Shown here in pieces: positions 7,516-52,740 of a stretch of DNA of 64,000 nt. The position numbers were made by a program, and so were the translations under genes. The DNA is taken from positions 1,054,001 to 1,118,000 of the forward strand of contig OX104119.1 in assembly GCA_944474755.1 (NCBI GenBank). Reading direction: 5' to 3'. The stretch's first letter is position 1, and the number at the start of each line of letters is the position of its first letter. A model generated the notes under the pieces. It ran no database searches, was not told where the DNA came from, and worked only from the letters and a program-made list of their open reading frames with translations. This DNA comes from Limnoperna fortunei (Eukaryota > Mollusca > Bivalvia > Mytilida > Modiolidae).

Positions 7516-7870
7516 TGTCTCTCAAACGAAGTTTTGGGAGACATATTGTTATTGTCCGGTTTCTTATTATTATTCTTCTTTCTTTTTTCTTTCCGTTCAA
7601 TCTTGTCCGCACATTTTCTATAAGATGTAATGTCCAATCAATTTGAAACTTTGGGAACCTGTTAAGGGTGACCTTTAGTTTTGCAGTCAACTTTTGGAAA
7701 TTTCAAAATGGCTGTCGTTTCCATGGAAATTGGGTCATTATATAAGACATTGCATTATCTTGGTAAAAATTTGTATTTGGTGGAGGGTGGTTTTCAACAT
7801 GATGAAAATTATAGTGGCAATGGGGGTTCGTTTGGGAGACATTCTGTGTTGGCATCCCAACACAAGCAGC
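7516..7870 (-). repeat. Family H element, minus orientation
   Basis: Read on the minus strand. The 5' palindrome is TGTGTTGG, loop GATG, CCAACACA (about 7841-7862). It is followed by the X motif TGTCTCCCAAACGAA. The body contains tttcaaaatggctgtcg on the plus strand. The 3' end is a hairpin at 7516-7543 whose arms are TGTCTC and GAGACA, with inner CAAAAC and GTTTG around TTC. Immediately before the hairpin is an aataataagaaacc-type run, very similar to the end of family C (49870-49927). The open frames here are artefacts of the repeat. Confidence 0.7.
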
Positions 7871-8199
7871 ACTAGTTACCTTTCTAGTTGTCAGATTTAT
7901 GGCGTATTTCACTACTTTTTTTATACATGTTTATGATTTTTAGGGATGCAGGACGCCACCTGCTACTTTTTGTGAAAATCTTGAAATATCGCCTTTAATT
8001 AAAAATTTCTTTCATTATTTACTCTTGATTTCCATAAATTTATAAAATTAAAAATAAAAATGAAACATTTATACCTGTAGGCTATACTAATTCAATAATT
8101 TATTAATGGTTTAAATACAAAGTTTTCGCTCTAAAGAATTTGGTAAAGGCAAAAATAATGAAATTGATATTCTGACACCCCCTTCCCCTAAACAAAACC
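7871..8199. other. Short intronic gap
   Basis: AT-rich, no gene or recognised repeat. Confidence 0.4.
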
Positions 8200-9245
8200 A
8201 GGGGCTCTTGCAAGCCTGTATCGCTCACCTGATTTTATAGGCAATGAACATGGCATTTTCCTGATGTTAAACTAAGTCCAGTTATTTATAATAAACTTCA
8301 AAGAGGACCATCCAAATAATATTGCCAATAAGGTCTTAGCTATCTTAAGCTGAGTCCTGCGGTGACAACCATTTTGAAATTCCATTTGGCAATAAAAAAC
8401 ATCAACTTTAAAGAAGACCATCCAAACATTGCCAGTAAGTCTTGTTTCCATTGGTTAATCTGTTTCAGGGGATAAGCCTATTAAAAGTTTTTCCCATAGG
8501 ATCCTATCTTAAACTAAGTCCTGCGGTGGTGGCCATTTTGATTTTCCACTCGGCATAAAAAACATAACCTTCATAAAGGACTATCCAAACAATATTGGTA
8601 GTAAGTTTTGTTTCGATTGGTTATTCAGTTTCAGAGAAGAAGGCTTTTAAAACTTTTTCTCATAGGATCCTATATGTTAAACTAAGTCCTGCTGTAATGG
8701 CCATCTTAATTTTCTAATTGGCATAACAACATAAACTTTATAGAAGACCATCCAAACAATATTGCCAGTAAGTTTTGTTTCGATTGGCTAACCGGTTTCA
8801 GAGGAGAAGTCTTTTAAATTTTTTTTCCATAGGGTCCTTTGTTAAACTAAGTCCTGCGGTGGCAGCAATTTTGAATTTCCAATTGTCATAAAAAACACAA
8901 ATTTTATAGAGAACAATCCAAACACTATTGCTTGTAAGTTTTGTGTCCATTGGTTAACCAGTTTCAGAGAAGAAACCTTTTTAAACTTTTTCCCCATTGG
9001 GTCCTTTGTTAAACTAAGTCTTGCGATGGCAGCCATATTAGTTTTCCAATCCAAATAAAAAACACAAACTCTGTACAGGTCCATCGGCATGCAATAAACA
9101 TTATGGCCCAATTTGGTTTCAACTGGCCAAGAGGTTTAAGAGAAGAAGATTAAAATGTAAAAAGTTTACAGTTGCCGCCGACAAAGCCAACCGCAACTAC
9201 GCCGACGGACGCAAAGTGATAACAATTTGGGTCGGGTGAGCTAAA
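8200..9245 (+). repeat. Family L repeat, tandem ~175-bp modules
   Basis: Opens with GGCTCTTGCAAGCC and TGTATCGCTCACCTG. It contains about five modules built from ttaaactaagtcctgcggtgg, cagccattttgaatttcc, ggaccatccaaacaatattg and ggtttcagagaagaagcc. It ends gccgacggacgcaaagtgat and gggtcgggtgagctaaaaaa. The 3' hairpin is incomplete because the left arm is missing. No gene is encoded. Confidence 0.8.
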
Positions 9246-9599
9246 AAAAAGAAAAAAAAACAATTTGCCGGTCGACTGTCAGAAACATAGTATTCTCGTG
9301 GAATGTTTTATAATTTCATTAGAAATGAATAAAACAAAGAGCAAAATATAATTTAAGACTTATTAAAGATTTCTTACAAGAAGAGAATACAACTATAGGC
9401 TCCCAGGAGCAGGTATCGCTCACCTGAACCTGAAACCAAACAACCCTTTTTTATCCAGCTTTTCGTTGCTATAAGGAATTGCCCAGCACTTCTGCAAAAA
9501 TCTTAATTTTGACCTTTTATGGGAAATAACTCCTATAAGGAGGAGCTTTTGATGCTAGAGGGAGAAGGGAGGTTCACTTCAAATTTGCTGTACCTGTTA

Positions 9600-10240
9600 T
9601 TATACATTTATTGACTTTGATATAGGTTAATATCTGGTTTTATCAACCCTGAAAAAATTATCCACAGAGCCAACGGCGAGTTTGGATATTATTTTTGAAG
9701 GTTGATAAAACCAGGTATTAACCTATATAAAAGTCGAATGTTTTATTATATGACTATTTTTACTTTTACACTGGAAGTCTTTAATAAAAAAGGATAACAA
9801 TAAAAATTTATTTCAACATAACAACAGTAGGCTGTCACATTTTAAATTGAAATATTCACATTTTCCAATTAAAATTTATAGTAATATTAGAGAAATTATG
9901 AAAAATTGGCAAAAACAGTTATGTTCATTGACAGTTGCAGAACTTGTCTGCTGCTCGTCAGCCATTTTGAACCAATGTCCACAAAAAGAATGTTTTAAAA
10001 GAATGATTTTGATTGGCTAATCTTTTCAATTTAACCAATCAAGTTAATGCTTGTTTCTCCACTGTTGAATTCTATTGTTAGCTACTGAAAAGTGATAAAT
10101 ATTCTATTTTTAGCTACTCAAAAGTCAAAACTTTTATATCAGTCTATTTTTATCTACTTTGAGGTTAACACACTGTCTGCATAATACTTTTCATGATACC
10201 CTGGGCCAATCAAAATTAAGATAAATGTTAGTCATATAAT
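9600..10240. mobile_element. AT-rich insertion with foldback, non-autonomous
   Basis: Interrupts the B phrase cctgttatacttttttaact. Bases 9612-9740 fold back: gatataggttaatatctgg pairs with ccaggtattaacctatat. Ends read ttattata at both borders in inverse orientation. It carries no open frame and its class is unknown. Confidence 0.5.
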
Positions 10241-10956
10241 AAACTTTTTTAACTATCAGTCGAAAACTCTCGACTACCACACCACCCCCTTTTTTCTTTT
10301 TTTCTATTTTAAGCCAACGTAGCTATGTAGGTAGTCAGGTGTCATGATTTGAAAAATTTTGGTAGATTACGCCCTAAAGATGATGTGTGCAATGTTTCAA
10401 AGCAGTCCTTTCATTGGTTAATGAGGAGAAAAATTTTTTAAATCAAGTAAAATTGATAAAAAAAATGTTCAAGGAGAATAATTCCTAAACAGTTCATCAG
10501 ACAATCTTGACCCTAAGTCATTGTTGTAGCCCTCATAGAGCAGAACAATTAAGCAATGCTAACTTTTCCTCTAGTTCTAATAATTTTTAAGATTTTGAGG
10601 CAAAAATGTCAAAAATAATCAATTTTGACAATTAAAGGGCAATAACTCCTATAAGGAGTCATCACACAACTTCGACCCAATGGAGTGTTTCGTAGAGCTT
10701 TTGATGCAGATGAAGGCATGTTTCTTCGGTTTTCCTGTATCTGTTACACTTTTTTAAATATAAGCCAAAAACTGTATTTTACCTCCCCCCCTCAGTCCTA
10801 CTTTTAGCCATGGTGGCCATGTTGGTTAATCTGCAGCCATAATTGGTACAAACTGGGTTGAGGGCATTTGACGGATGATGTGTACAAAGTTTCAAAGCAG
10901 TACTTTCAGTTGTTTCAGAGGAGAAGATTTAAAAAACTCAATTAAAACCGATTAAA

Positions 10957-11872
10957 CTAGACAAAGTCGATCTAGCGATCGCTGATACCCCCGCTTTTGT
11001 GAAAATTTCTAACGTTTTTCGTGGATTGTGACCTTGAAATTGGATGGATTTCCACCAAAATCAATAGGCTTCTTACCAACAAAATATATAAGAATATTTT
11101 ACAGTTTCATTAAAATCGGATGAAAACTTTTTGAGTTATTTTCCGGAAACAACTTTTTGTAAAAATTTCTAACATTTTTCGTGGACTGTGACCTTGAAAT
11201 TTGATGGATTTCCCCCAAAATCAAAAGGCTGTTTACCAACCTGATATATAACAATATCCCAAAGTTTCATTCAAATCGGAAGCAAAGTTTTTGAGTTATT
11301 GTCCGGAAACAACTTTTATGTTAAAATTTCTTACGTTTTTCGTGGACTGCGACCTTGAAATTTGATGGATTTCCCCCAAAATCAAAAGGCTTTTTACCAA
11401 CCTGATATATAACAATATCCCAAAGTTTCATTAAAATCGGATGCAAACTTTTTGAGTTATTGTGCGGAAACAATTTTTATGTTAAAATTTCTAAAGTTTT
11501 TCGTGGACTGTGACCTTGAAATTTGACGGATTTCCATCAAAATCAAAAGGCTTTTTACCAACCTGATATATAACAATATCCCAAAGTTTCATTTAAATCG
11601 GATGTAAACTTTTTGAGTTATTGTCCGAAAACAACTTTTTTGTTAAAATTTCTAACGTTTTTCGTGGATTGTGACCTTGAAATTTGATGGATTTCCCCCA
11701 AAGTCGATAGGCTTCTTACCAACCTGATATATAACAATATCCCAAAGTTTCATTCAAATCGGATATAAACTTTTTGAATTATCATCCGGAAACCAAATGT
11801 GGACGGACGAACGGACGGATGGACATGAGGACCACTATATACCCCCGACTCTGTCGAGCGGGGGTATAAAAA
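10957..11872 (+). repeat. Family A element, copy 1, with ~160-bp tandem core
   Basis: Begins GACAAAGTCGATCT and the 10-bp palindrome AGCGATCGCT, then ATACCCCCGC. It contains about five units of ~160 bp (ctaacgtttttcgtggactg, gaccttgaaatttgatgg, caacctgatatataacaata). It runs through ggacggacgaacggacgg to a 3' hairpin with arms TACCCCCG and CGGGGGTA near 11839-11868, then A's. It is inserted in an A-rich stretch of family B. Confidence 0.85.
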
Positions 11873-12223
11873 AACAGTTCAAGGGGAATAACTCTTAAAC
11901 GGTTAATCAGACAATCTTGACCCTTAGGTCATTTTTGTAGCCCTCATAGAGCAGAACAATTAAGCAATGCTAACTTTTTCTCTAGTTCTAATAATTTTCA
12001 AGATTTTGAAGCAAATATGGCAAAAATCATCAATTTTTACAATTAAAGGGCAATAACTCCAACAAGGAGTCATCATACAACTTTGTCCGCTGAAGTGTTT
12101 TGTTGAGCTTTAGATGCTGAAGAAGGAAGGTCTGTTCGGTTTTCCTGTATCTGTTATATTTTTTGAACTATAAGCAAAAAACTGTATTTTGACCCCATTG
12201 TTCTATTTTTAGCCATGGCAGTC

Positions 12224-12895
12224 TTCACGAAATGCGTCGGTCCGACGGACAAAACCGATATAATAAAGCTTGGACCGGTTAAAAATTGTGTTTCGTCGGT
12301 CTGAAAGTTCGACATTGTTATGATCGAAGTTCAAGTTGCCCTGATGGTTCATTCACAGAAAATACTTATATATCGGTAGTACTGATTCACACAGACTTCC
12401 AACTTTTGAGTAAATATGTAAAACCAATAAAAATTGCAGATCCTGCGTAACTAACTCATTTTTTAAACATTTTAGTGTGGCAAATGGATTAAGCGCCATT
12501 TGTTTATTTCCGGGATACGTCTTATTACCAACAGCGAGAAATGAGAAAAAGGCAGACTACAACGGCCTTTAATGAAAAATCGTAACTGTTTGATAAACAA
12601 ACTCTTTAAAATGGGGTTGAAACTCAAACGTTTGTTTAAAACATATTTTATTTTAATCATTGGCTTTGATAATATATAAAATCTAGTAAGCTGAAATTGA
12701 AGGAATAAAAATAACTAGTCATCAATAACCTCATGATAATTTCTGTAAATGGTTGTCCCATGGAGCAGTTGCGGTCAGCTTTGTGAATTATTTCTGTGTA
12801 TAATAAAATGTTATTTATATTCTTTTGAATTTTGTCTGTGGAAGTTGGTGGACCGAATGTCCACCATTCTTTGGAAAGATTTCGTGAAGACTGCC
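12224..12895. mobile_element. TIR DNA transposon O, non-autonomous
   Basis: Terminal inverted repeats AGTCTTCACGAAAT (left, ~12224) and its complement (right, ~12895) split the B phrase agccatggcggccatg. The flanking GCCATGGC occurs on both sides, consistent with an 8-bp target duplication. Because that octamer is palindromic, the exact duplication length cannot be settled. The octamer length fits hAT-like elements (inference). No transposase frame is present. Confidence 0.65.
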
Positions 12896-13342
12896 ATGGC
12901 GGCCATGTTGGTTGGTCTGAGGCCATGATTTGAGCAAAATTGGTAGAGGACATTTTACTGATGATGTGTGCAAAGTTTCAAAGCAATCCCTTCAGTGGTT
13001 TTGGAGAAGATTTTTGAAGAAAAGTTAACGACGACGACGACGGACGCCAAGTGATGGCAAAATGGGGGTCCTGTCTGCGAGTACCTCTGGCTTCCCACAA
13101 CTAATTCTTTGTGATTTCCAACAGATGATTTTATTAGATTTTTTTTTAAGATAAAGTGACTGTAATGTTGTATGAAATCAATGTACGTACCTTGTTAGTA
13201 ACATGTCTGCCCATTCCATTGTCATTGATATCCGATTGGCTTCGTCCATCTTAATACGTAAATGTGTCTTGGAGATAGGGAGAATAAAACATTCATATGC
13301 ACAATCAACTTTGCTTTAGGAGAAATTTTCTCATTATTTGTA

Positions 13343-15534
13343 GTCCGAGAATCCTCTGCCGTCCAAGGCTTTTATTTATTTTTTTTTTGCGTGGGACGTC
13401 AGAGAGCTCTCTATAAGCAAAACAGTGGATTTTGCGACACTGGTCTGGGTAGGCAAATCTCATCTTTCCATATGTTAACAAACATTTTCGTACAGTTAAA
13501 CTAATATAAATCGCTTCTTTAGACATTTGTCTCTATGAATATAATCATCATACCTTCAATCAAGCTACCATATAAGTGGTTTTTGCCGGGTGATTTAATT
13601 TTCGCTATATTCGAAAATAAAAACACGCGAAGTATTAAGACAAATGATAGAGTTATTCATTTTGAATATGGACTGCAAAAATTACATTGTGCCAAAATAA
13701 ACTCACACAGTTTTTTAACAAAAATCCTAAATTTTCCCCACGCGAAAAAAAAACACTTAAGTTATACAGTAATTTAAGCACTGGACTTCTCACATTGGTG
13801 TCACGTGACTTTTTGTTCAAAATAAAAGTGAAATGTCCAGATGTAAGAGTATCGATGGAAATTAGAAATAGTCTCAGAAATAGACTTAAATCATCTTGAT
13901 TAAAGGTATGATTATTATATTCATAGATGAAAAAAAAAGAAGTGAATTATATCTGGTTTAACTGGACAAAAATGTTTGTTTACATCTGGAAAAGATGAAA
14001 TTTGCAGACCCAGACGGGTGTCGCAAAATCTGCTGATTTGCTTATGGAGAGCTCACTGACGTCCGATGCAAAACCTGGAATCCAAATGACTTAAACTAAA
14101 TTAAAATTTTTGAAATTAACAGTGTCAGTCTAGTTGTTATAGCTTTTAAGTTTCTGTGCAAAAAATTAAACATTTCTTCAAAAAATTTGTTAAATACAAT
14201 AACTCCTATAAGGTGCCATCGACAATTTCTGAAAATTAAATGGTTTTTAGGCATTGTCCTTTAGGGTACTTTAGAAATTTACAGTTTTACTCTACTAATA
14301 GGTGTGTTATAGACTAATTTATAATTAAAAAACTGTTTATTTGTCCAAATTCATAATGAAAGGGCAATAACTCCTATGAAGAGTCATCTTGCAATTTTGG
14401 ACTAAGCAATCATTTGTAGGGCTTCTATTGCTGATCATTTGTGCAATTTACAGTTTTAATCTAGCTACTAAAGTTTTCAAGTTACATGACAAAAATCGAA
14501 AATTTCTGAACAAAATTGTCATTTAAGGGCAATAACCCTTTTAAGGAGTCATCTGACAATTTCAGACCAATTAAATGAATTGTAGGGCTTTTTTTGCTGA
14601 TCATTTTTGCAATTTATTATTTCACTCTTGAGCTTTTATGGTTTTATTACAGGACAAAAACATAAAATTTCATAAAAATTGCAATTTAAGGGCAATAACT
14701 CCTATAATGAGTCATCTGACAGTTTCAGACTTAAATAGTAATTTCTAGGGCTTGTATTGCTGATTATTTTTGCTATTAACAGTTTCACTCTAGCTGTTAC
14801 AGTTTTTAAGTTATAGGACAAAAACGGAAAATTTCATAAAAAATTGTCATTTATGGGCAATAACTTATTTAAGGAGTTGTCTGACAATTTCAGACCAATC
14901 AAGTGAATTGTAGGGTCTTTATTGCTGATCATTTGTGCAATTGACAGTTTCAATCTAGCTGCTATAGTTTTCAAGTTACAGGACAAAAACGGAAAATTTC
15001 ATAAAAAAGTGAATTGTAGGGCTTTTATTGCTGATAATTTTTGCCATTTACAGTTTCACTCTACCTCGTATAGTTTCAGGTTATATTGTAAATACCAAAA
15101 AAATTGTCAAAAATCTTCAAAAAAGGGCAATAACTCCTACAAGACCCCAATACACAACTTCGCACTAATCGTAACTATTGTAGACCTTAATGTGCTGATC
15201 AATTTGAAGTAACGGTTTTCTCTATAGCTATTATAGTTTTTTAGATAATGATCAAAAACCTGTGTTGACCCCCCATTTTCTATTTTTAGTAACAGCGGCC
15301 ATATTTGTCTGTTGATCAACACCCTGGGTACAAACTTGAAACTAGGAACCCTAAGGATGATTGTGGCCAAGTTTGAAAAAAATAGCCCAGTGGTTTCAGA
15401 GGAGAAGATTTTTGAACAGGTTTACGACGGATGACAGACGACGAACGCCAAGTGATAGCAAAAGCTCACATGGACCTTCGGTCCAGGTGAGCTACAAAAA
15501 GAAAAAAAATGTTGGACCGCAGAGGATTCTCGGA
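13343..15534. mobile_element. TIR DNA transposon M with a K repeat nested inside
   Basis: Left end GTCCGAGAATCCTCTGCCG (13343). The right end is its near-complement, ending attctcgg at 15534. TA lies outside both ends (left tta/gt, right aa/tac), suggesting a Tc1/mariner-like TA target. The inverted arms extend inward for several hundred bases: ttttgcgacactggtctggg near 13430 pairs with cagacgggtgtcgcaaaat near 14010, and atcataccttcaatcaag pairs with cttgattaaaggtatgat. A family K element (14076-15500) splits the right arm. No transposase recognised. Confidence 0.7.
14076..15500 (+). repeat. Family K repeat, copy 2, with intact 3' hairpin
   Basis: Homologous to 2470-5380 from cctggaatccaaatgactt onward; the 5' palindrome is missing. 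It ends in a hairpin at 15463-15493. Outer arms are AGCTCAC and GTGAGCT, inner arms TGGACC and GGTCCA, around TTC, followed by acaaaaag. Internal frames are not genes. Confidence 0.8.
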
Positions 15535-15539
15535 ATACA

Positions 15540-21315: not shown

Positions 21316-21368
21316 CAATTAATTCAGAGTACTTTGTAAAAACAAATGAAAACTGCCTCAATCTGTGT

Positions 21369-25820: not shown

Positions 25821-28800
25821 GAGGCTCTTAAGAGCCAAAATCGCTGACCTGATTTTATAAGCAATGAGCATGGCATTTTCCTGATGTTAAACTAAGTCCT
25901 GTAATTTTTAATAAACTGTAAAGAGGACCATCCAAACAATATTGCTTTAAAATTGAATTTCCATTGGTTAACTGGTTTTAGAGAAAAACATTTTTTTTTA
26001 ATTTGCCCTTAGGGTCCTATTTTAAACTAAGTCCTGCGATGGTAGCCATATTGAATTTTAATAAAAACATAAACTTTAGAGAAGACCACCAAAACAATAT
26101 TGTCAGTAAGTTTTGTTTCCAAAATTTGGTTAATTGGTTTCAGAGAAGAAACCTTTTAAAACTGTTACCCATAGGGTCCACTGTTAATCTATGTAATGCT
26201 GTGGTGGCCATTTTGATTTTCCTATTGACATAAAAACAAGTGTGGACACAGAAAAATGTCTCGCCTGAATTCCGCATCAGTAACGAAAATAAATTTTGTC
26301 ATAAGCATTACATAAATAGCATTAAATATCAGCAGCGACCTGTATACAAAATATTGTCACCATACTCTGCATAGTTACAGGGGAACAGCCGTAACCCAAA
26401 AACTTTAACGTAGTCGCTGGACGGTGAAATTGAGGTCAAGGTCAGGTGGAACCTACCAGACCGTCATGTACTATTCATCAGCAACCTATATACCAAATAT
26501 TGTCATCCAACCATGCGTAGTTACAGAGGAACTGTCGTAACCCAAAAACTTTAATGTAGTCGCTGGACCATGAAATTGAGGTCAAGGTCAGGTGATGCCT
26601 ACCAGACAGTCATGTACTAGTCATCAGCAACCTATACACCAAATATTGTCATCCTACCATGCATAGTTACAGAGGAACTGTCGTAACCCAAAAACTTTAA
26701 TGTAGTCGCTGCACCGTGAAATTGAGGTCAAGGTCAGGTGACACCTACCAGACAGTCATGTACTAGTCATCAGCAACCTATACACCAAATATTGTCATCC
26801 TACCATGAGTTGTTACTGAGGAACTGTCGTAACCCAAAAACTGTAACGTAGTCGCTGGACTGTGAAATTGAGGTCAAGGTCGGGTGACACCTACCAGACA
26901 GTCATGTACTAGTCATCAGCAACCTATACACCAAATATTGTCATCCTACCATGCGTAGTTACAGGGGAACTGTCGTAACCCAAAAACTTTAATGTAGTCG
27001 CTGGACCGTGAAATTGAGGTCAAGGTCAGGTGACACCTACCAGACAGTCATTTACTATTCATCAGCAACCTATATACCAAATATTGCCATCCTACCATGC
27101 GTAGTTACAGAGGAACTGTCGTAACCCAAAAACTTTAACGTAGTCGCTGGACCGTGAAATTGAGGTCAAGGTCAGGTGACACCTACCAGACAGTCATGTA
27201 CTAGTCATCAGCAACCTATACACCAAATATTGTCATCCTACCATGCGTAGTTACAGAGGACCTGTCGTAACCCAAAAACTTTAACGTAGTCGCTGGACCG
27301 TGAAATTGAGGTCAAGGTCAGGTGACACCTACCAGACAGTCATGTACTAGTCATCAGCAACCTATACACCAAATATTGTCATCCTACCATGCGTAGTTAC
27401 AGAGGAACTGTCGTAACCCAAAAACTTTAACGTAGTCGCTGGACCGTGAAATTGAGGACAAGGTCGGGTGACACCTACCAGACAGTCATGTACTAGTCAT
27501 CAGCAACCTATACACCAAATATTGTCATCCTACCATGCGTAGTTACAAAGGAACTGTCGTACCCCAAAAACTTCAACGTAGTCGCTGGACCGTGCAATTG
27601 AGGTCAAGGTCGGGTGACACCTACCAGACAGTCATGTACTAGTCATCAGCATCCTATACACCAAATATTGTCATCCTACCATGCGTAGTTACAGAGGAAC
27701 TGTCATAACCCAAAAACTTTAACGTAGTCGCTGGACCGTGACATTGAGGTCAAGGTCAGGTGACAGGTGACTGACTGGCGAGTACTCATCATAAGCTACC
27801 TCTGGACCAAATTTGATGGACCTAGGGCTTGGGCTTACAAAGATATGAAGCAAGATGTCAAGTGTTTACGCCGCCGCCTCCGGATTCCCATACATATGTC
27901 TCGCCTCCAGCGACTTTCGTCGCAGGCGAGACAAAAACCATAAACTTCAAAGAGGACCATCCAAACAATATTGCTAGCAAGTTTTGTTAACATTGGTTAA
28001 CCAGTTTTAGAGAAGAAGCCTTTTAAACCTTTTTCCCATAGGGTCCTATATTAAACTAAGTACTGCATTTTGATTTACCTATTGGAATAAAAAACATAAA
28101 CTTTTTAGATGACAATCCAAACAATATTGGTAGCAAGTTTTGATTCCATTGGTTAATCGGTTTCAGAGAAGCCTTTTTAAACATTTTTTCCATGGGGTTC
28201 AATGTTAAAGCAAGTCCTGCGGTGGCAGTCATTTTGGATTTACTATTGGGAAAAAAAATTAACTTTATAGAGGACCATCAAAACAATATTGCTAGTAAGT
28301 TTTGCTTCGATTGGTTAACTGATTTCTGAGAAGAAGCCTTCTAACTTTTTCCTATAGGGTCCTATGTTAAACTAAGTCCTGGATGGTGGCAATTTTGAAT
28401 TTCCAATTGTCATAAAAACATACACTATATAGGACCATCCAAACAATATTGCTGGTTAGTTTTGTTTACATTGGTTAACAAGTTTCAGAGAAGAAGCCCT
28501 TTTAAACTTTTCCCCTTAGAGTCCAATGTTAAACTAACTCCTGTGGTGGCATCCAAACCATCCAAACAATACTGTATTAAGTTTTGTTTTGATTGGTTAA
28601 CCAGTTTCAGAGAGAAGAAGCCATTTAAAACTTTTTCTCATATGGTCCTATGTTAAACTAAGTCCTGCGGTGGCAAACATTTTGAATTTCCAATTGGCAT
28701 AGAAAACACAAACTTTATAAAGGACCATCCACAATATTTCTAGTAAGTTTTGATTTGATTGGTTAACTGGTTTCAGAGAAGACTCCCTTTACAACTTTTT

Positions 28801-29015: not shown

Positions 29016-29067
29016 TATGGGTAGCATTTTTAGGTTACAAGACAAAAATGGAAAGTTTCATAAACAA

Positions 29068-29872
29068 GTGTGGACACAGAAAAACGTCTCGCCTGCATCC
29101 CGCATCAGTAACGAAAATAAATTTCGTCATAAGCATTACATAAATAGCATTAAATATCACCAGGGCCTGTATACGAAATATTGTCACCATACCATTCATA
29201 GTTACAGGGGAACAGCCGTAACCCAAAAACTTTAACGTAGTCGCTGGACCGTGAAATTGAGGTCAAGGTCAGGTGGAACCTACCAGACAGTCATGTACTA
29301 TTCATTAGCAACCTATATACCAAATATTGTCATCCTACCATGCGTGGTTGCAGAGGAACTGTCGTAACCCAAAAACTTTAACGTAGTCACTGGACCGTGA
29401 AATTGAGGTCAAGATCAGGTGACACCTACCAGACAGTCATGTACTAGTCATCAGCAACCTATATACCAAATATTGTCATCCGAGGAACCGTCGTAACCCA
29501 AAAACTTTAATGTAGTCGCTGGACCGGGAAATTGAGGTCAAGGTCAGGTGACACCTACCAGACAGTCATGTACTAGTAATCAGCAACCTATACACCAAAT
29601 ATTGTCATCCTACAATGCGTAGTTACAGAGGAACTGCCGTAACCCAAAAACTTTAACATAGTCGCGGGACCGTGACATTGAGGTCAAGGTCAGGTAACAG
29701 GTGACTGACTGGCAAGTTCTCATCATAAGCTACATCTGTACCAAATTTGATGGACCTAGGGCTTGGGCTTACAAATATATGAAGCAAGATGTCAAGTGTT
29801 TACGCCGCCGCCCGCGCCGCCGGATTCCCATACATATGTCTCGCCTCCAGCGACTATCGTCGCAGGCGAGAC
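29068..29872 (+). repeat. Family D element, copy 3 (shortest)
   Basis: Same ends as copy 2 (hairpin at about 29839-29872) but only about four core units. One unit lacks the segment between gtcatcc and gaggaaccg. It is inserted at a K-like phrase (ggaaagtttcataaa) and joined on the right to a family B fragment. Confidence 0.85.
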
Positions 29873-29875: not shown

Positions 29876-30134
29876 ATCATCAATTTTGACAATTAAATGG
29901 CAATAACTCCTACAAGGAGTCATCATACAACTTTCACCCAATGGAGTGTTTTGTAGAGCTTTCGATGCTGAAGAAGGAAGGTCTGTTCGGTTTTCCTGTA
30001 TCTGTTATACTTTTTGAACTATAAGCAAAAAACTGTATTTTGACCCCCCTGTTCTATTTTTAGCCATGGTGGCCATGTTGGTTGGGCTGAGGCCATGATT
30101 TGGGCAAACTTGGTAGAGGTCAGGTGAGCTAAAA
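29876..30134 (+). repeat. 3' half-module of family B
   Basis: Begins atcaattttgacaattaaatgg, includes tagccatggtggccatgttgg, and jumps from ttggtagagg directly to gtcaggtgagctaaaaagg. The distal hairpin arm is therefore present and the proximal arm deleted. Confidence 0.75.
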
Positions 30135-33835: not shown

Positions 33836-34970
33836 CTAGAGGCTCCTGGGAGCCTGTATCGCTCACCTGAACCTGAAACCAAACAACCCTTTTTTATCCA
33901 GCTTTTCTTTGCTATAAGGAATTGCCCAACACTTCTGCAAAAGTCATTTTGACCTTTTAAGGGAAATAACTCCTATAAAGAGGAGCTTTTGATGCTCAGA
34001 GGGAGAAGGGAGTTTCACTTCAAATTTGCTGTACCTGTTATACTTTTTTAACTATCAGTCGAAAACTCTCTTGACTCCCCCCCCCCCCATTTTCTATTTT
34101 AAGCCAACGTAGCTATGTAGGTAGTCAAGTATCATGATTTGCACAATTTTGGTAGAGGACGTCCTAAAGATGATGTGTGCAATGTTTCAAAGCAGTCTTT
34201 TAATGGGTTAAAGAGGAGAAGATTTTTTAAAATCAAGTAAAATTGATTAACAAAATGTTCAAGGAGAATAATTCCTAAACGGTTCATTAGACAATCTTGA
34301 CCCTAAGTCATTTTTGTAGCCCTCATAGAGCAGAACAATTAAGCAATGCTAACTTTTTCTCTAGTTCTAATAATTTTCAAGATTTGGAGGCAAAAATGTC
34401 AAAAATAATCACCTTTGACAATTAAAGGGCAATAACTCCTATAAGGAGTCCTCACTTCAACCCAATGGAGTGTTTCGTAGAGCTTTTGATGCAGATGAAG
34501 GCATGTCTCTTTGGTTTTCCTGTATCTGTTACACTTTTTTAAATATTAGCCAAAAATTGATTTTAACCCCCCCCCCCTCCATTCTAATTTTCGCCATGGC
34601 AGCAATGTTTGTTAATCTGCAGCCATGGTTGGTGCAAACTTGGTTGAGGACATTTGACAGATGATGTGTACAAAGTTTCAAAGCAGTACTTTCAGTGGTT
34701 TCAGAGGAGAAGATTTATAAAAAATCAATTTAATCCCGAAAAAAAAACAGTTCAAGGGGAATAACTCTTAAACGGTTAATTAGACAATCTTGACCCTTAG
34801 TCATTTTTGTAGCCCTTATAGAGCAGAACAATTAAGCAATGCTAATTTTTTCTCTAGTTCTAATAATTTTCAAGATTTTGAGGCAAAAATGGCAAAAATC
34901 ATCAATTTTGACAATTAAAGGGCAATAACTCCTACAAGGATTCATTCTTTTACATTCGCCTTCGTTCTTC

Positions 34971-40910: not shown

Positions 40911-41041
40911 ATGCAATATGATACCCTTGAAGAACGAAGGCGAATGTAAAAGAATGTTCCCTCATCCAAGCATACCTGTAAGGATGTGAAGGATGAGGAG
41001 CATTCTTATAATGAGCCTGAGGCTCAAAAGGGTATCATATT
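40911..41041 (+). repeat. Internal complementary region of DIRS element 1
   Basis: Bases 40929-40956 are complementary to the left extension (34943-34970). Bases 40957-41025 are complementary to the right extension (41249-41310), apart from a 9-base insertion (gtgaaggat). The two halves are joined back to back. In DIRS elements this region templates the ends during circle formation. Confidence 0.9.
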
Positions 41042-41108
41042 CCCTCCCAGTGGATGGTGTTTGGCCCACCCCACTTCATAACATGTTGGTACAAACAGTC
41101 TTTGAATT

Positions 41109-41248
41109 ATGGCGATTTCCACGTGGACAAGTGGTTTTCTACCCAGCGAAGGTCATTGTTATGGGTCAGTATTTTGACCTCTGTGAACCGAGATGTGTAC
41201 GGTATGTCTTGCCGCATACCTCAAATTATTATGCAATATGATACCCTT
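41109..41248 (+). repeat. Right inverted terminal repeat of DIRS element 1
   Basis: 140 bp beginning ATGGCGATTTCCACGTGG and ending CAATATGATACCCTT, the inverse complement of 34971-35110. It is followed by the extension gagcctcaggctcattat to about 41310. Confidence 0.92.
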
Positions 41249-42044
41249 TTGAGCCTCAGGCTCATTATAAGAATGCTCCTCATCCTTACTGGTATGCTTG
41301 GATGAGGATACATCATACAACTTTAACCCAATGGAGTGTTTCGTTGAGCTTTTGATGCCGATGAAGGTATGTCTCTTCGGTTTTCCTGTATCTGTTATTC
41401 TTTTTGAACTATAAGCCAAAAATTGTATTTCGACCCCTATGTTCTATTTGACTGATGATGTGTTCAAAGTTTCAAAGCAGTACTTTCGGTGGTTTCAGAG
41501 GAGAAGATTTTAAAATATCAATTAAAACCGATTAAAATAAACAGTTCAAGGGGAATAACTCTTAAACGGTTAATCAGACAATCTTGACTCTAAAGCCAAT
41601 TTTGTAGCCCTCATAGAGCAGAACAATTAAGCAATGCTAATTTTTTCTCTAGTTCTAATAATTTTCAAGATTTTGAGGCAATAACTCCTACAAGGAGTCG
41701 TCATACAACTTTGACCCAATGGTGTGTTTTGTAGAGCTTTTGATGCTGAAGAAGGAAAGTCTCTTTGGTTTTCCTGAATCTGTTATACTTTTTGAACTAT
41801 AAGCCAAAAACTGTATTTTGACCCACCTGTTCTATTTTTAGCCATGGTGGCTATGTTGGTTGGTATGAGGCCATGATTTGTGCAAACTTGGCAGAGGACA
41901 TTTTACTGATGATTTGTGCAAAGTTTCAAAGAAATCCCTTCAGTGGTTTTGGAGGAGAAGATTTTTAAAGAAAAGTTAGCGACGACGACGACGGACGCCA
42001 AGTGATGGCAATAGCTCACGTGACCCTTCGGGTCAGGTGAGCTA

Positions 42045-43998: not shown

Positions 43999-45968
43999 AA
44001 CTAGAGGCTCATAGGAGCCTGTATCGCTCACCTGAACCTGAAACCAAACAACGCTTTTCTACCCAGCTTTTCTTTGCTATAAGGAATTGCCCAACACTTC
44101 TGCAAAAGTCATAATAATTCCTATAAGGAGGAGCTTTTGATGCTTAGAGGGAGAAGGGAGGTTCACTTCAAATTTGCTGTACCTGTTATACTTTTTTAAC
44201 TATCAGTCGAAAACTCTCTTGACTCCCCCCTCCCCCCATTTTCTATTTTAAGCTAACGTAGCTATATAGGTAGTCAGGTGTCATGATTTGCACAATTTTG
44301 GTAGAGGACGTCTTAAAGATGATGTGTGCAATGTTTCAAAGCAGTCCTTAAATGGGTTAAATAGGAGAAGAGTTTATAAAATCAAGTAAAATTGATTAAG
44401 AAATGTTCAAGGAGAACAATTCCTAAACGGTTCATCAGACAATCTTGACCCTAAGTCATTTTTGTAGCCCTCATATAGCAGAACAATTAAGCCATGCTAA
44501 CTTTTTCTCTAGTTCTAATAATTTTCAAGATTTTGAGGCACAAATGTCAAAAATAATCAATTTTGACAATTAAAGGGCAATAACTCCTATAAGGAGTCCT
44601 TATACAACTTCAACCCAATGGAGTGTTTCCTAGAGCTTTTGATGCAGATGAAGGCATGTCTCTTCGGTTTTCCTGTATCTGTTACACTTTTTTAAATATA
44701 AGCCAAAAACTGTATTTTACCCACCCCCCTCCATTCTATTTTTAGCCATGGCGGCCATGTTGGTTAATCTGCAGCCATGGTTGGTGCAAACCTGGTTGAG
44801 GACATTCGACGGATGATGTGTACAAAGTTTCAAAGCAGTACTTTCAGTGGTTTCAGAGGAGAAGATTTTTAAAAAATCAATTAAAACCGATTAAAAAAAC
44901 AGTTCAAGGGGAATAACTCTTAAATGGTTCATCAGACAATCTTAACACTAAAGTCATTTTTGTAGCCCTCATAGAGCAGAACAATTAAGCAATGCTAACT
45001 TTTTCTCTAGTTCTAATAATTTTCAAGATTTTGAGGCAAAAATGTCAAAAATAATCAATTTTGACAATTAAAGGGCAATAACTCCTATAAGGGGTCATCC
45101 TACTACTTTGACCCAATGGAGTGTTTCGTAGAGCTTTTGATGCCGATGAAGGCATGTCATTTCGGTCTTCCTGCATCTGTTATACTTTTTGAACTATAAA
45201 GTATAAGCCAAAAATTGTATTTTGACCCCCCCGTTCTTTTTTTAGCCATGGCGGCCACGTTGGTTAATCTGCGGCCATGGTTGGTGCAAACTTGGTTGAG
45301 GACATTTGATGGATGATGTGTACAAAGTTTCAAAGCAGTACTTTCAGTGGTTTCAGAGGAGATGATTTTAAAAAATCAATTAAAACCTATTAAAATAAAC
45401 AGTTCAAGGGGAATAACTCTTAAACGGTTAATCAGACATCTTGACTCTCAGGCCAATTTTGTAGCCCTTATAGAGCAGAACAATTAAGCAATGCTTACTT
45501 TTTCTCTAGTTCTAATAATTTTCAAGATTGTGATGCAAAAATGGCAAAAATCATCAATTTCGACAATTAAAGGGCAATAACTCCTACAAGGAGTAGTCAT
45601 ACAACTTTGACCCAATGGAGTGTTTTGTAGAGCTTTTGATGCTGAAGAAGGAAGGTCTGTTTGGTTTTCATGTATCTGTTATACTTTTTGAACTATAAGC
45701 CAAAAACTGTATTTTGACCCCCCTGTTCTATTTTTAGCCATGGCGGCCATGTTGGTTGGTCTGAGGCCATGATTTGTGCAAAATTGGCAGAGGACATTTT
45801 ACTGATGATGTGTGCAAAGTTTCAAAGCAATCCCTTCAGTGGTTTTGGAGAAGAAGACTTTTAAAGAAAAGTTAGCGACGACGACGACAACGACGACGAC
45901 GACGACGGACGACGACGGACGCCAAGTGATGGCAATAGCTCACATGACCCTTCGGGTCAGGTGAGCTA
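43999..45968 (+). repeat. Family B repeat, copy 4, uninterrupted
   Basis: Complete: 5' palindrome GGCTCATAGGAGCC, TGTATC, GCTCACCTGAACC. A unique ~350-bp leader follows, then three ~480-bp modules with the phrases aaacagttcaaggggaataa, gtagccctcatagagcagaa, gtgttttgtagagcttttga and gccatggcggccatgttgg. An expanded gacgacgacgac run leads to the 3' hairpin at 45936-45968 and A's. This is the reference copy for the family. Confidence 0.85.
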
Positions 45969-45974
45969 AAAAGT

Positions 45975-46374: not shown

Positions 46375-46508
46375 AAAAATGAAGCCTGTTGTTGTCAAGC
46401 AAAATGTCTAGCAATTTTTCACTTTAATGCAAATAGAGTAATAAATTGATTGTCATGTTTACTGCTTACAACTATTTTCATTAACCCCAACCTGAAATTA
46501 TAACTTAC

Positions 46509-46575
46509 TCAGACTTGTGAATTGTATCACATCTGGTCACACATGGTGCATTATTTCTTTGAAAACATTCATAAT
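46509..46575 (-). CDS. Exon of the Roc receptor gene, end of cysteine-rich ectodomain
   Basis: A 67-bp minus-strand exon between acceptor tttctctttcag (before 46575) and a strong donor TCTGA before gtaagtta (after 46509). Incoming phase 1, outgoing phase 2. Joined to the exon at 61207 it completes LLSA plus DYECFQRNNAPCVTRCDTIH, adding three cysteines to the module. The junction LLSADYEC resembles the end of a cysteine-rich module I recall from uncharacterised bivalve proteins. Two good splice sites, correct phase and sensible sequence make this a convincing small exon. Confidence 0.72.
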
Positions 46576-46579
46576 CTGA

Positions 46580-47215
46580 AAGAGAAACACACACATAAAA
46601 TATGTCACTTTCTAGGCAGTCAACAAGTGAATTAAGTAAACCATTTTAATTACATAGTTGTCCACACAGAGCATTTGATTAAATCAACACTTCCAATATT
46701 TTAAAAAACATAAATTTGTGGTTATGAATATGTGAGGTGTATGTGGTGTAAACACCATTTTCAGTTATTTTCAGCAATATAATATCATCATGTTTTTACC
46801 GAGAAAGAAATAGTACCGAAAGCTCCCGAATCACAGTAGCAGGAAAACTGACAATCATTTCATTTATTTTAAAATGGCTACTGGGCATTACACAGCATTC
46901 CAATGTTCCCAGCAATATTTTTAGTTATTATCATCTGGGAGATTTGATTGTACAGACATGTTCTCTTTTTGTAGCTGAAGGAAAATTAAAGCTGCTCATT
47001 TTTAAAGATATAAATTTGCTAAAATTCTATTCATTTATTTAAAATTTAAAAAATAGCAGCTATCTGGTAGTTAGCAGATAGGGCAAAATTGTTTTTATTT
47101 TTTGTAAATAATTTATGTGACTTGCTTTTCAAGTACACATAAAAGACACTGCTTACTAAGTTTGCACATCATAACAAATTTTACCAAAAGTTCAGCTTTA
47201 TTAGAATAAAAAAAA
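46580..47215. other. Intronic sequence
   Basis: No repeat or exon recognised. Confidence 0.4.
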
Positions 47216-49930
47216 TTAAAATTTACGTTTCCCGAAACGTTGAAGTCGCCTCCCGTTCCGCACTTTTGACCGAGTAGTGGGAACTAAAAGTCAAGAACAC
47301 AACTTCATAACATGAGCTTTTAGTTGGCCAAGTTTCATTTCGATCGGTTAAAAGATGAGCGAGAAAACGAGCAAACTTTAAAACGGCCGCCATTTTGAAA
47401 CCGGAAGTCGGACAAAAAATTTTTTTTGCAAAAATGCTCAGGATAGTTAGCTGTATCAGTATACCAATTTTCATTGAAATTGCTCTGGCCATAACTGAGA
47501 TCTGACAACGGCCGCCATTTTGTAAAACTTTAAAACGGCCGCCATTTTGAAACCGGAAGTCGAACAAAACATTTTTAAATAGTGGCACACTTAGGGTATC
47601 ATAAGCTACCTGTATACCAAATTTCGTTTAAATCGGATGTCGTTTAAATTTTTACATTTTTAGGGGGGTGGTGTTCGGATGGCGGCCATTTTGAAATGTC
47701 GGCCGCGTCAAATTTTTTTTTGCAAAAATGCTCGGGATAGTTAGCTGTATCAGTATACCAATTTTCATTGAAATTGCTTTGGCAATTACTGAGATCTGAC
47801 AACAACCGTCATTTTTTTCAACGGCGGCCATTTTGAAAATGGCGGCCATTTTTAAAAATTTCAAAAGTGGATTGCACAACTTCAGGTCACCCTTAACATG
47901 TTCCCAAAGTTTCATTTCGATCGGTTAAAAGATGAGCGAGAAAACGAGCGGACAACATTGCGAGGGGAAAACATAAGAATTATGAAAATAATTAAAATTT
48001 ACGTTTCCCGAAACGTTGAAGTCGCCTCCCGTTCCGCACTTTTGACCGTCAAGAGCACAACTTCATAACATGAGCTTTCATTTGGCCAAGTTTCATTTCG
48101 ATCGGTTAAAAGATGAGCGAGAAAACGAGCGGACAACATTGCGAGGGGAAAACATAAGAAATATGAAAATAATAATAATAATAATAAAATTTACGTTTCC
48201 CGAAACGTTGAAGTCGCCTCCCGTTCCGCACTTTTGACCGAGTAGAGGGAACTAAAAGTCAAGAGCACAACTTCATAACATGAGCTTTCAGTTGGCCAAG
48301 TTTCATTTCGATCGGTTAAAAGATGAGCGAGAAAACGAGCAAACTTTAAAACGGCCGCCATTTTGAAACCAGAAGTCGGACAAAAAATTTTTTTTGCAAA
48401 AATGCTCAGGATAGTTAGCTGTATCAGTATACCAATTTTCATTGAAATTGCTCTGGCCATAACTGAGATCTGACAACGGCCGCCATTTTGTAAAACTTTA
48501 AAACGGCCGCCATTTTGAAACCGGAAGTCGGACAAAAATTTTGAAAATAGTGGCACACTCAGGGTATCATAAGCTACCTGTATACCAAATTTCGTTTAAA
48601 TCGGATGACGTTTAAATTTTTACAGTTTTAGGGGGGTGGTGTTCGGATGGCGGCCATTTTGAAATGTCGGCCGCGTCAAATTTTTTTTTGCAAAAATGCT
48701 CGGGATAGGGAGCTGTATCAGTATACCAATTTTCATTGAAATTGCTTTGGCAATTACTGAGATCTGACAACGGCCGTCATTTTTTTTCAACGGCGGCCAT
48801 TTTGAAAATGGCGGCCATTTTGAAAATTTCAAAAGTGGATTGCACAACTTCAGGTCACCCTTAACATGTTCCCAAAGTTTCATTTCGATCGGTTAAAAGA
48901 TGAGCGAGAAAACGAGCGGACAACATTGCGAGGGGAAAAAGGAAAACATAATAATAATAATAAGAAACGGAGTAAAAACAATAAGTCGCCCGACACTTCG
49001 TGGTCGGCGACTTAATAATAATAAGAAACGGAGTAAAAACAATAAGTCGCCCGACACTTCGTGGTCGGCGACTTAATAATAATAATTAAAATTTACGTTT
49101 CCCGAAACGTTGAAGTCGCCTCCCGTTCCGCACTTTTGACCGAGTAGAGGGAACTAAAAGTCAAGAGCACAACTTCATAACATGAGCTTTCAGTTGGCCA
49201 AGTTTCATTTCGATCGGTTAAAAGATGAGCGAGAAAACGAGCAAACTTTAAAACGGCCGCCATTTTGAAACCGGAAGTCGGACAAAAAATTTTTTTTGCA
49301 AAAATGCTCAGGATAGTTAGCTGTATCAGTATACCAATTTTCATTGAAATTGCTCTGGCCATAACTGAGATCTGACAACGGCCGCCATTTTGTAAAACTT
49401 TAAAACGGCCGCCATTTTGAAACCGGAAGTCGGACAAAACATTTTTAAATAGTGGCTCACTTAGGGTATCATAAGCTACCTGTATACCAAATTTCGTCTA
49501 AATCGGATGACGTTTAAATTTTTACATTTTTAGGGGGGTGGTGTTCGGATGGCGGCCATTTTGAAATGTCGGCCGCGTCAAATTTTTTTTTGCAAAAATG
49601 CTCGGAATAGTTAGCTGTACCAGTATACCAATTTTCATTGAAATTGCTTTGGCAATTACTGAGATCTGACAACGGCCGTTTTTTTTTTCAACGGCGGCCA
49701 TTTTGAAAATGGCGGCCATTTTGAAAATTTCAAAAGTGGATTGCACAACTTCAGGTCACCCTTAACATGTTCCCAAAGTTTCATTTCGATCGGTTAAAAG
49801 ATGAGCGAGAAAACGAGCGGACAACATTGCAAGGGGAAAACATAAGAAATATGAAAATAATAATAATAATAATAAGAAACGGAGTAAAAACAATAAGTCG
49901 CCCGACACTTCGTGGTCGGCGACTTAACTA
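47216..49930 (+). repeat. Family C repeats in tandem: three full copies, one short copy, extra end hairpins
   Basis: Full copies start near 47219, 48187 and 49088, with a 175-bp short form at 47995-48170. Each begins with the palindrome ACGTTTCCCGAAACGT, then tg and AAGTCGCC. Each contains several cggccgccattttgaaa boxes and ends gagcggacaacattgcgagg. The terminal hairpin (AAGTCGCC and GGCGACTT outside, CGAC and GTCG inside, around ACTTCGTG) occurs near 48983-49014, 49042-49074 and 49893-49925, each after aagaaacggagtaaaaacaa. Long minus-strand frames (121, 87 and 114 codons) are conserved only because the DNA is repeated. I do not call them genes. Confidence 0.85.
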
Positions 49931-50743
49931 GTGCAGAAAAACAACTACATGTATTAACCCACAGTAGGCAATACAAAAACAGATAACACTCCAACTGGTA
50001 GATAAATCTTGTTAAATGCAAGTAGGGAATAATATGATAATTAATGCATATATTTAATTTAATGTGTCAAAACAATTCACACTCTTTCCAAAAAGGTCCT
50101 ATTATTAGAGATAATTCATGCCTTAATTATAGTGAGCACAAAATCTGCTTGATCGCATAATAATAATCTGCTTAATGATGATTTGGATTTTTTTTTGTCC
50201 GGAAGTTGGTACTGTAAAAAAAACTGTCCCAATGTGTATTGAAAGGGGCACTAAAATTTGCAACATTCAATAAAAAATAATTTTTTTGTTTAAAAAAATA
50301 ACCCAAAAAAAGTTAGACATTTTTTTTCAATCTTGGTAGAAAACACATAGCACTTAATAAAAGTCACATAAGGACTATATACTTGATTTACTGTATAAGC
50401 ATGATAATGCCATTGACAGTTACAATTTTACATGGAATACACTGTACATGCCCCGGGAATTTTAATTTCTCTGCGCATCCACGTGGAGGAAACTGAGATC
50501 TCCGCGGTCATCTCCAGTGTGACTCAGAATCACGAATTGCTGGTGGAGAGTCGGTATCGGGTGGAGAGCCCAAGACTCCATTGTGTATTCATGGTGTATC
50601 CACTTTGTAAACATTTGGGGATATATTGGCACATTTGGTAACTATTTACATTATCACATAAATAATGGGAATTTATCACAAGCATACCTGTAACCATCAG
50701 GGGTTCGACGGGTTCGGATTACCCCCCCCCCCCCCCCCCATTG
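49931..50743. other. Intronic sequence with a small diverged repeat
   Basis: Bases 50430-50600 (gggaattttaatttctc, cacgtggaggaaactgaga) are an inverse relative of 60763-60975. A poly-C run lies near 50723-50740, just before a family A copy. No gene. Confidence 0.4.
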
Positions 50744-52740
50744 AAAAGTAGACAAAGTCGATCTAGCGATCGCTGATACCCCCGCTTTTGTGAAAATTTC
50801 TAATGTTTTTCGTGGACTGCGACCTTGAAATTTGATGGTTTTCCCCCAAAATCAAAAGGCTTTTTACCAACCTGATATATAACAATATCCCAAAGTTTCA
50901 TTCAAATCGGATGCAAACTTTTTGAGTTATTGTCCGAAAACAACTTTTATGTTAAAATTTCTAACGTTTTTCATGGACTGTGACCTTGAAATTTGACGGA
51001 TTTCCCCCCAAAATCGATAGGCTTCTTACCAACCTGATATATGACAATATCCCAAAGTTTCATTCAAATCGGATGTAAACATTTTATACCCCCGCTCGAC
51101 AGAGTCGGGGGTATATAGTGGTCCTCATGTCGTCCGTCCGTCCGTTCGTCCGTCCACATTTGGTTTCCGGATGATAATTCAAAAAGTTTACATCCGATTT
51201 GAATGAAACTTTGGGATATTGTTATATATCAGGTTGGTAAGAAGCCTATCGATTTTGGGGGAAATCCGTCAAATTTCAAGGTCACAGTCCACGAAAAACG
51301 TTAGAAATTTTAACAAAAAAGTTGTTTCCGGACAATAACTCAAAAAGTTTACATCCGATTTGAATGAAACTTTGGGATATTGTCATATATCAGGTTGGTA
51401 AGAACCCTATCGATTTTGGGGGAAATCCGTCAAATTTCAAGGTCACAGTCCACGAAAAACGTTAGAAATTTTAACATAAAAGTTGTTTCCAGACAATAAC
51501 TCAAAAAGTTTGCATCCGATTTGAATGAAACTTTGGGACATTGTTATATATCAGGTTGGTAAAAAGCCTTTTGATTTTGGGGGAAATCCATCAAATTTCA
51601 AGGTCACAGTCCACAAAAACGTTAGAAATTTTTACAAAAAAGTTGTTTCCGGACAATAACTCAAAAAGTTTACATCCGATTTGAATGAAACTTTGGGATA
51701 TTGTCATATATCAGGTTGGTAATAAGCCTATCGATTTTGGGGGAAATCCGTCAAATTTCAAGGTCACAGTCCACGAAAAACGTTAGAAATTTTTACAAAA
51801 AAGTTGTTTCCGGATGATAACTCAAAAAGTTTGCATGTGATTTGAACGAAACTTTGAGATATTGTTATATATCAGGTTGGTAAGAAGCCTATCGATTTTG
51901 GGGGAAATCTGTCAAATTTCAAGGTCACAGTCTACGAAAAATGTTAGAAATTTTTACAAAAAGTTGTTTCGGAAAATGACTCAAAAAGTTTTCATCCGAT
52001 TTTAATGAAACTGTAAAATATTCTTATATATCTTGTTGGTAAGAAGCCTATTGATTTTGGTGGAAATCCATCCAATTGTAAGGTCACAATCCACGAAAAA
52101 CGTTAGAAATTTTCACAAAAGCGGGGGTATCAGCGATCGCTAGATCGACTTTGTCCAGTTGAGTTATTGTCCGGAAACAACTTTTTTGTTAAAATTTCTA
52201 ACGTTTTTCGTGGACTGTGACCTTGAAATTTGACGGATTTCCCCCAAAATCAATAGGCTTCTTACCAACCTGATATATAACAATATCCCAAAGTTTCATG
52301 CAAATCGGATGCAAACTTTTTGAGTTATTGTCCGGAAACAACTTTTTTGTAAACATTTCTAACGTTTTTCGTGGACTGTGACCTTGAAATTTGACGGATT
52401 TCCCCCAAAATCGATAGGCTTCTTACCAACCTGATATATGACAATATCTTAAAGTTTCATTCAAATCGGATGTAAACTTTTTGAGTTATTGTCCGGAAAC
52501 AACTTTTTTGTTAAAATTTCTAACGTTTTTCGTGGACTGTGACCTTGAAATTTGACGGATTTCCCCCAAAATCGATAGGCTTCTTACCAACCTGAAATAT
52601 AACAATATCCCAAAGTTTCATTCAAATCGGATGTAAACTTTGTGAATTATCATCCGGAAACCAAATGTGGACGGACGAACGGACGGACGGACGACATGAG
52701 GACCACTATATACCCCCGACTCTGTCGAGCGGGGGTATAA
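50744..52740. repeat. Family A element interrupted by a second, inverted family A element
   Basis: The host copy is plus-oriented and occupies 50744-51085 and 52158-52740. The guest, minus-oriented, is complete at about 51086-52157, from TATACCCCCGCTCGAC to CGACTTTGTCCA. Both share ~160-bp core units (caacctgatatataacaata and complements). The host ends with the normal hairpin at about 52709-52737. The arrangement forms an approximately 1-kb inverted repeat of high identity. Confidence 0.85.

What the first reader, a model, noticed from the sequence alone, without database searches (positions are those of the whole stretch)
7516..52740. At least five unrelated-looking repeat families share one terminal plan: palindrome, X ... 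hairpin X-Y-loop-Y'-X'
Each family starts with a palindrome followed within about 7 bases by a motif X, and ends in a hairpin whose outer stem is X with its complement and whose inner stem Y is family-specific. A: AGCGATCGCT then ATACCCCCGC. B/K/L: GGCTCCTGGGAGCC then GCTCACCTG. C: ACGTTTCCCGAAACGT then AAGTCGCC. D: GTGTGGACAC then GTCTCGCCTGC. H: TGTGTTGG/CCAACACA then TGTCTCCCAAACGAA. E, F and G show the same kind of 3' hairpin. Most have GACGGACG-like runs just before the hairpin, A's after it, and tandem cores. Since 5' X can also pair with 3' X', the ends could switch between local and long-range pairing. This resembles asymmetric terminal inverted repeats of Helentron/HINE elements, and tandem cores are known from bivalve pearl/CvE elements, but this systematic two-hairpin plan across families is striking.
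Basis: partly seen in the sequence, partly recalled or inferred. Interest (0 to 1): 0.85.

Follow-up and report, generated by a model that had tools for sequence, protein, structure and literature searches.

The report
Helentron mobile elements, read backwards
The repeats are short, gene-less copies of a known class of rolling-circle jumping genes (Helentrons); their shared two-hairpin ends are that class's standard end structure seen in reverse, and a full-length relative of one family was found elsewhere in the same genome.

Summary
Families A, B, C, D and H carry palindrome-X at one end and an X-Y-loop-Y'-X' hairpin at the other. A strict scan finds 8 complete plans in the window; 200 simulated windows average 0.335, maximum 3. 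Read on the other strand this is the published Helitron2/Helentron layout: a 5' inverted repeat folding into a 5' hairpin, and its 3' partner just upstream of a 3' palindrome. Empty sites in the window support the ends of copies A1, D1 and, less exactly, D2. Family H (7515-7875) matches the ends of a Rep-bearing element at C7: 89% over 213 bp, 90% over 94 bp. A relative at C5 has OTU, Rep, PIF1 helicase and endonuclease domains in one open frame. C copies lie in arrays split at a (TTA)n tract behind the 5' hairpin; I infer insertion of copies into each other, but exchange between tracts is not excluded. In 6 of 9 element kinds the contiguous X:X' match is longer than the local stem, in 3 equal. 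Known kind, useful detail.

The parts
7515..7875 (+). Family H: non-autonomous Helentron (HINE). 5' hairpin with X 7515-7544, 3' X' 7827-7842, palindrome 7845-7864, terminus CACTAG|TT (inferred, no empty site)
   Evidence: 89% over 213 bp and 90% over 94 bp to the ends of the C7 element
10957..11867 (-). Family A copy A1: 5' hairpin 11839-11867, 3' X' 10985-10994, palindrome 10974-10983, terminus CTAG; 161-bp core repeats
   Evidence: empty sites at 44818, 41460, 45318, 34666 (90-91%)
50748..52738 (-). Family A copy (outer), interrupted by an opposite-strand A copy; terminus CTAC
   Evidence: 5' hairpin 52710-52738, 3' end 50748-50785
51086..52158 (+). Family A copy inside the core array of the outer A copy: 5' hairpin 51086-51114, 3' X' and palindrome 52121-52141, terminus CCAG
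   Evidence: core sequence continues across the insertion by eye
44001..45967 (-). Family B copy with 499-bp core repeats: 5' hairpin 45937-45967, 3' X' 44026-44034, palindrome 44006-44019, terminus CTAG (inferred)
33836..33869 (-). Family B 3' end (X' + palindrome + CTAG|TTTT)
47216..49925 (-). Family C array (low end approximate): hairpins ending at 49925, 49074, 49013; 3' palindromes at 49095, 48193, 48001, 47225; order ( ) ( ( ) ) )
48952..49085 (-). Tandem 61-bp units (2.2 copies, 100% matches): 5' hairpin module plus (TTA)n
3087..4152 (-). Family D copy D1 (5' hairpin damaged)
   Evidence: Empty sites at 14598 and 4406 (85-86%)
26237..27932 (-). Family D copy D2 with 146-bp core repeats
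   Evidence: diverged empty sites at 8484 and 28343 (78%)
29065..29872 (-). Family D copy D3
53140..53180 (-). Family D 3' end (copy D4, high end approximate)

Best explanation
The repeats are HINEs, non-autonomous Helentrons. On its own strand each begins after T's with X, the 5' subterminal inverted repeat, which folds with nearby bases into a 5' hairpin. A microsatellite and often tandem core repeats follow. The element ends with X', a palindrome and a short tail, CTAG or a near variant, before T. A Rep-helicase-endonuclease protein from an autonomous Helentron moves them by rolling-circle transposition (inferred from domains and class). For family H a Rep-bearing element with matching ends was found. 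Inferred, about 0.5: at the end of a round X pairs with X' instead of its own hairpin arm and marks the stop. Inferred, about 0.6, for C, H and related elements: Helentrons insert at TT, so their own (TTA)n tract is a preferred target; copies insert into each other behind the 5' hairpin and build arrays. The confidence below is for HINE identity.
For: Plan matches the published layout. Empty sites for A1 and D1, and less exactly D2, show no clear target duplication. PF14214: 147 matches, 150 of 180 first-look candidates scored, many in frames over 2000 aa; a lower bound. The C5 element has a 2468-aa frame with OTU, DUF6570, Helitron_like_N, PIF1 and Exo_endo_phos, HIH and Y...Y motifs, and ends of the same plan. 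Window H is 89-90% identical to the ends of the C7 element, which has a full PF14214 match in a 2292-aa frame. 36 of 36 adjacent 5'/3' units listed agree in type; shuffles average 15.3, maximum 26. Core-only array pieces start at C reference positions 59-65 and hairpin-only pieces end at 64-73 at C5, C7 and C12. At C7 the Rep-bearing element (about 9.8 kb by coordinates) and an H copy lie between a C hairpin and a C core. Contiguous X:X' match exceeds the outer local stem in 6 of 9 element kinds, equal in 3, shorter in none.
Against: No autonomous partner was found for A, B or D. The middle of the C7 element could not be fetched, so its helicase and endonuclease are unchecked, and its coding part was not compared with C5. 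Bracket order does not show nesting: 52 matched pairs against a shuffled mean of 47.6, reached by 2629 of 20000 shuffles; 62 opening against 73 closing ends. Exchange between (TTA)n tracts could make some of the same pieces. For the switch: with interruptions bridged, local hairpins are often as long as X:X' or longer; 2 of 36 units go the other way, local 16 against long 9 and local 8 against long 2; C, G and window H tie. At C9 the 5' hairpin was not seen.
Confidence: 0.9

Rival explanations
1. The C-family arrays arose by unequal exchange or slippage between (TTA)n tracts, not by nested insertion.
For: Cut points lie in or beside (TTA)n; some array blocks look duplicated, such as the two (() blocks at 11523 and 13261 of the C1 array; bracket order is not better nested than chance.
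Against: A Rep-bearing element and an H copy lie at this place between a C hairpin and a C core at C7, which exchange alone does not give; types C, H, S and 5 are mixed within single arrays.
Confidence: 0.3
2. The arrays are rolling-circle concatemers made when replication runs past the end.
For: Tandem Helitron arrays with many 5' ends and one 3' end are reported in plants (review PMC12628747, passages).
Against: Runs of 3' ends without 5' hairpins between them are common)) 38, ((31)(26 in ten regions; run-through should give complete head-to-tail units.
Confidence: 0.1
3. The shared plan is chance or selective reading of low-complexity sequence.
For: Loose rules give many spurious hits; the strict rule gives at least one hit in 57 of 200 simulated windows.
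Against: 8 hits against a maximum of 3 in 200 simulations; 4223 exact copies of one palindrome against 1 for its reversal; empty sites.
Confidence: 0.01

Closest known systems
Helentron / HINE (Thomas et al. 2014, PMC4067079; passages read)
   Same: Rep-helicase-endonuclease (C5 element), subterminal inverted repeats, palindrome near the 3' end, microsatellite and tandem cores, insertion in T-rich sites without target change
   Different: Several copies here end in CTAG|T, like the CTRR end described for Helitron1
Cg_HINE elements of Crassostrea gigas (PMC7492417; section 7 and passages read)
   Same: subTIR with a complementary IR and GTCC/GTCY microsatellite on the left, subTIR plus palindrome on the right, satellite-like central repeats
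   Different: That study could not relate its HINEs to autonomous elements from Repbase; here H is linked to a Rep-bearing element. Some families here carry (TTA)n instead
Helitron2 (Bao and Jurka 2013, PMC3627910; passages read)
   Same: ATIRs, 5' hairpin, 3' ATIR upstream of the 3' hairpin, proposed ATIR:ATIR pairing at the replication end
   Different: The C5 element carries an endonuclease domain, so it is of the Helentron type
FoHeli of Fusarium oxysporum (PMC5148889; passages read)
   Same: ATIR ends; self-insertion proposed to give several 5' ends with one 3' end
   Different: Here clustered 5' hairpins and clustered 3' ends both occur, cut at one microsatellite

Membership tests
Helentron/HINE | Autonomous partner encodes Rep, helicase and AP-type endonuclease | tested here: inconclusive
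   Met in the C5 element (PF14214, PF05970, PF03372), whose ends resemble H only in part (82% over 67 bp, 92% over 38 bp). The closer C7 partner of H was checked for Rep only. No partner found for A, B or D
Helentron/HINE | Subterminal inverted repeats at both ends | tested here: met
   Same-element contiguous X:X' matches: A 11, B 10, C 8, D 10 and 11, window H 7 (14 of 15 with one mismatch by eye)
Helentron/HINE | Palindrome or stem-loop near the 3' end | tested here: met
   present in A, B, C, D and H
Helentron/HINE | Insertion in T-rich site without target duplication | tested here: met
   for A1 and D1, less exactly D2; not tested by empty sites for B, and for C and H only their own flanks matched
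Helentron/HINE | Rolling-circle transposition | not testable with these tools
   Inferred from the Rep domain
Canonical Helitron (Helitron1) | 5' TC and 3' CTRR, with no 5' hairpin or ATIR | tested here: not met
   3' CTAG occurs in A 1 of 3, B 3 of 5 and H 1 of 1 window copies, but 5' TC is absent and ATIR plus 5' hairpin are present

The most novel reading that the evidence does not exclude
The 3' inverted repeat is complementary to the 5' hairpin's arm plus its loop (16 bases in the H-type element at C7, 19 in S types), while the local stem is shorter or carries a mismatch or bulge, so the ends form a strand-invasion switch that sets the replication end; and these Helentrons carry their own landing pad, a (TTA)n tract just inside the 5' hairpin, which makes them build satellite-like arrays by inserting into each other.
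Probability: 0.35. Interest if true: 0.62.

Novelty: new member of a known kind. Interest (0 to 1): 0.4.

Why it matters
It ties a HINE to a Rep-bearing element by sequence of both ends within one genome, a link the oyster study left open (passage). It offers material to test the proposal that the two inverted repeats pair to end replication, and a route from transposon to satellite-like arrays.

Tried and rejected
Loose plan scan: 67 groups, mostly tandem-core or low-complexity matches by eye; replaced by the strict scan. Free family search in 363,700 bases held: dominated by GGCCGCCAT and TGACCTTGA repeats; only family-like rows were used, chosen by eye. The second Rep element studied (C12, L039+L040; copies at C5 and C10) was examined for ends: unresolved; B-type and P/Q-type ends lie beside it. 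One search was run on the wrong strand and found nothing; redone. A permutation with miscounted types was redone. In one search the three H rows show long contig 0 because my X' offset was one base off, and the C7 hairpin was cut one base late (local 1, long 15); the C7 values used (12 and 16) are. P and Q rows join ends from neighbouring units, not one proven element, and were dropped from the 9 kinds. In the 36 units, type A hairpins were split into H and S by hand from their X. One opposite-strand 3' module in C1_34.01 was left out of the bracket counts.

Papers: passages only of PMC3627910, PMC4067079, PMC5148889, PMC12628747, PMC9741609; section 7 and passages of PMC7492417. Literature searches: (open-access text only).

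Full report
Observation. The motifs named for A, B, C, D and H are in the window. A strict rule finds 16 TT-flanked hairpins, 8 with a downstream X' plus palindrome; 200 Markov-1 simulations in 2-kb blocks give 3.69 and 0.335 on average, maxima 10 and 3, with at least one full plan in 57 of 200. The C palindrome has 2050 and 2173 exact copies on the two strands against 1 for its letters read backwards. E, F and G were not located.

Reading direction. On the other strand, palindrome-X...X-Y-loop-Y'-X' becomes X-hairpin ... X'-palindrome. Bao and Jurka describe Helitron2 so: a 5' ATIR 0-2 bp from the 5' end, pairing with downstream bases into a 5' hairpin, and a 3' ATIR about 20-30 bp from the 3' end just upstream of the hairpin. 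Oyster HINEs have subTIR, complementary IR and microsatellite (GTCY, GTCC, GTCK in several) on the left, subTIR and palindrome on the right. A-D lie on the minus strand except one A copy; H lies on the plus strand.

Ends. Joined 80-bp flanks of seven window elements were searched in the held sequences. Uninterrupted counterparts spanning the joint were found for A1 (best four 90-91%), D1 (85-86%), D2 (78%). For the A outer copy, the C block and H only their own flanks matched. D3 gave no match clearly spanning the joint at comparable identity. The alignments place A1 between GATTAAA and an A-run with no clear duplication. The tail after the palindrome reads CTAG in A 1 of 3, B 3 of 5 and H 1 of 1 window copies (others CTAC, CCAG, CTGG, ATAG), CTTG in D 3 of 4. 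One A copy sits in opposite orientation inside the core array of another (50748-52738).

Rep-bearing elements. PF14214 gave 147 matches, 150 of 180 first-look candidates scored. At C5:36858500-36878400 a 2468-aa frame holds OTU, DUF6570, Helitron_like_N, PIF1 and Exo_endo_phos, with HIH and Y...Y motifs; its 5' hairpin is at 860 and its 3' X' and palindrome near 14800 of L041+L042. At C7, C9 and C12, frames of 2292, 2292 and 2358 aa with full PF14214 matches are followed by 3' ends like window H; 5' hairpins like H were seen at C7 and C12, not at C9. Window H matches C7 at 89% over 213 bp and 90% over 94 bp, C12 at 84% over 225 bp and 90% over 94 bp, and C5 only at 82% over 67 bp and 92% over 38 bp at its tips. 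So H looks like an internally deleted relative of the C7/C12 kind. Another Rep element (L039+L040) has OTU, a Herpes_teg_N-type domain, Rep, PIF1 and endonuclease; Helentrons with such domains are reported, also in molluscs (PMC9741609, passages). Its ends stayed unresolved.

Arrays. The four Rep loci examined of this kind (C5, C7, C9, C12) lie among C-family copies. In ten regions (window C block and nine stretches of C1, chosen for exact C palindromes) there are 62 five-prime and 73 three-prime modules, with neighbours ((31)) 38 and )(26. Core-only pieces begin at positions 59-65 and hairpin-only pieces end at 64-73 of an 854-bp C reference, in its (TTA)n tract (C5, C7, C12; one core after the H copy at C7 matches only from 183, with the tract and some core bases visible before it, and one piece is cut by a stretch end). 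At C7 the order is C hairpin, Rep-bearing element, H copy, C core; at C5 three C hairpins, the Rep element, a complete C, then core-only units. I infer repeated insertion into the element's own (TTA)n tract. Against it, bracket order is no better nested than shuffles (52 against mean 47.6; 2629 of 20000 reach it), and exchange between tracts remains possible. Self-insertion is proposed for Fusarium Helitron2 elements.

Pairing. For nine element kinds with both ends from one element (A, B, C, D, window H, C7, C5, S, G) the contiguous X:X' match exceeds the contiguous outer local stem in 6 (A 11/9, B 10/7, D 10-11/9, C7 16/12, C5 12/5, S 19/8), equals it in 3 (C 8/8, window H 7/7, G 10/10) and is shorter in none (C7). 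S and G were found by requiring 9 matching long-range bases, which favours the result. Counted with interruptions bridged, local hairpins are often longer. Among 36 adjacent units, apart from three H rows with a one-base offset error, 8 have longer long-range match, 23 tie and 2 go the other way. In all 36 the 5' and 3' types agree (shuffled mean 15.3, maximum 26 in 100000), which common descent alone can give. The C5 X and X' both differ from the H type at two positions; at one of them the hairpin arm has stayed H-like. That is expected if X:X' is the pairing under selection, but recombination with C-type ends could also do it.

Verdict. A confirmed observation of a known class with the direction reversed; the tie of H to a Rep-bearing element and the array anatomy add detail.

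Noticed in passing
10957, 44001, 33836, 2458, 7875: Several 3' termini read CTAG|T, fitting the CTRR end described for canonical Helitron1, in elements with Helentron-type ends.
   Followed up: partly
L039:4726-10000: A second Rep-bearing open frame of 2832 aa carries both an OTU domain and a herpes-tegument-like domain (PF04843).
   Followed up: partly
L043 about 600-664, L045 about 655-718: An A-type X' with a different palindrome (GTGAGCATTGCTCAC) and CTCTAG|TTTT end sits where the otherwise similar L039 locus has unrelated sequence.
   Followed up: no
L040, L044, L046: Two further end types (P: AAGGTCTTTCCC, Q: GGCTTTCCAC) with hairpins and (TTA)n tracts, in places next to C copies.
   Followed up: partly
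window 54600-55030 and 41000-41260: Repeats with TTGAGCCTCAGGCTCAA-like palindromes, not assigned to any family.
   Followed up: no
window 30121-30129: A B-type 5' X (TTTTAGCTCACCTGACC) whose hairpin arm is missing.
   Followed up: no
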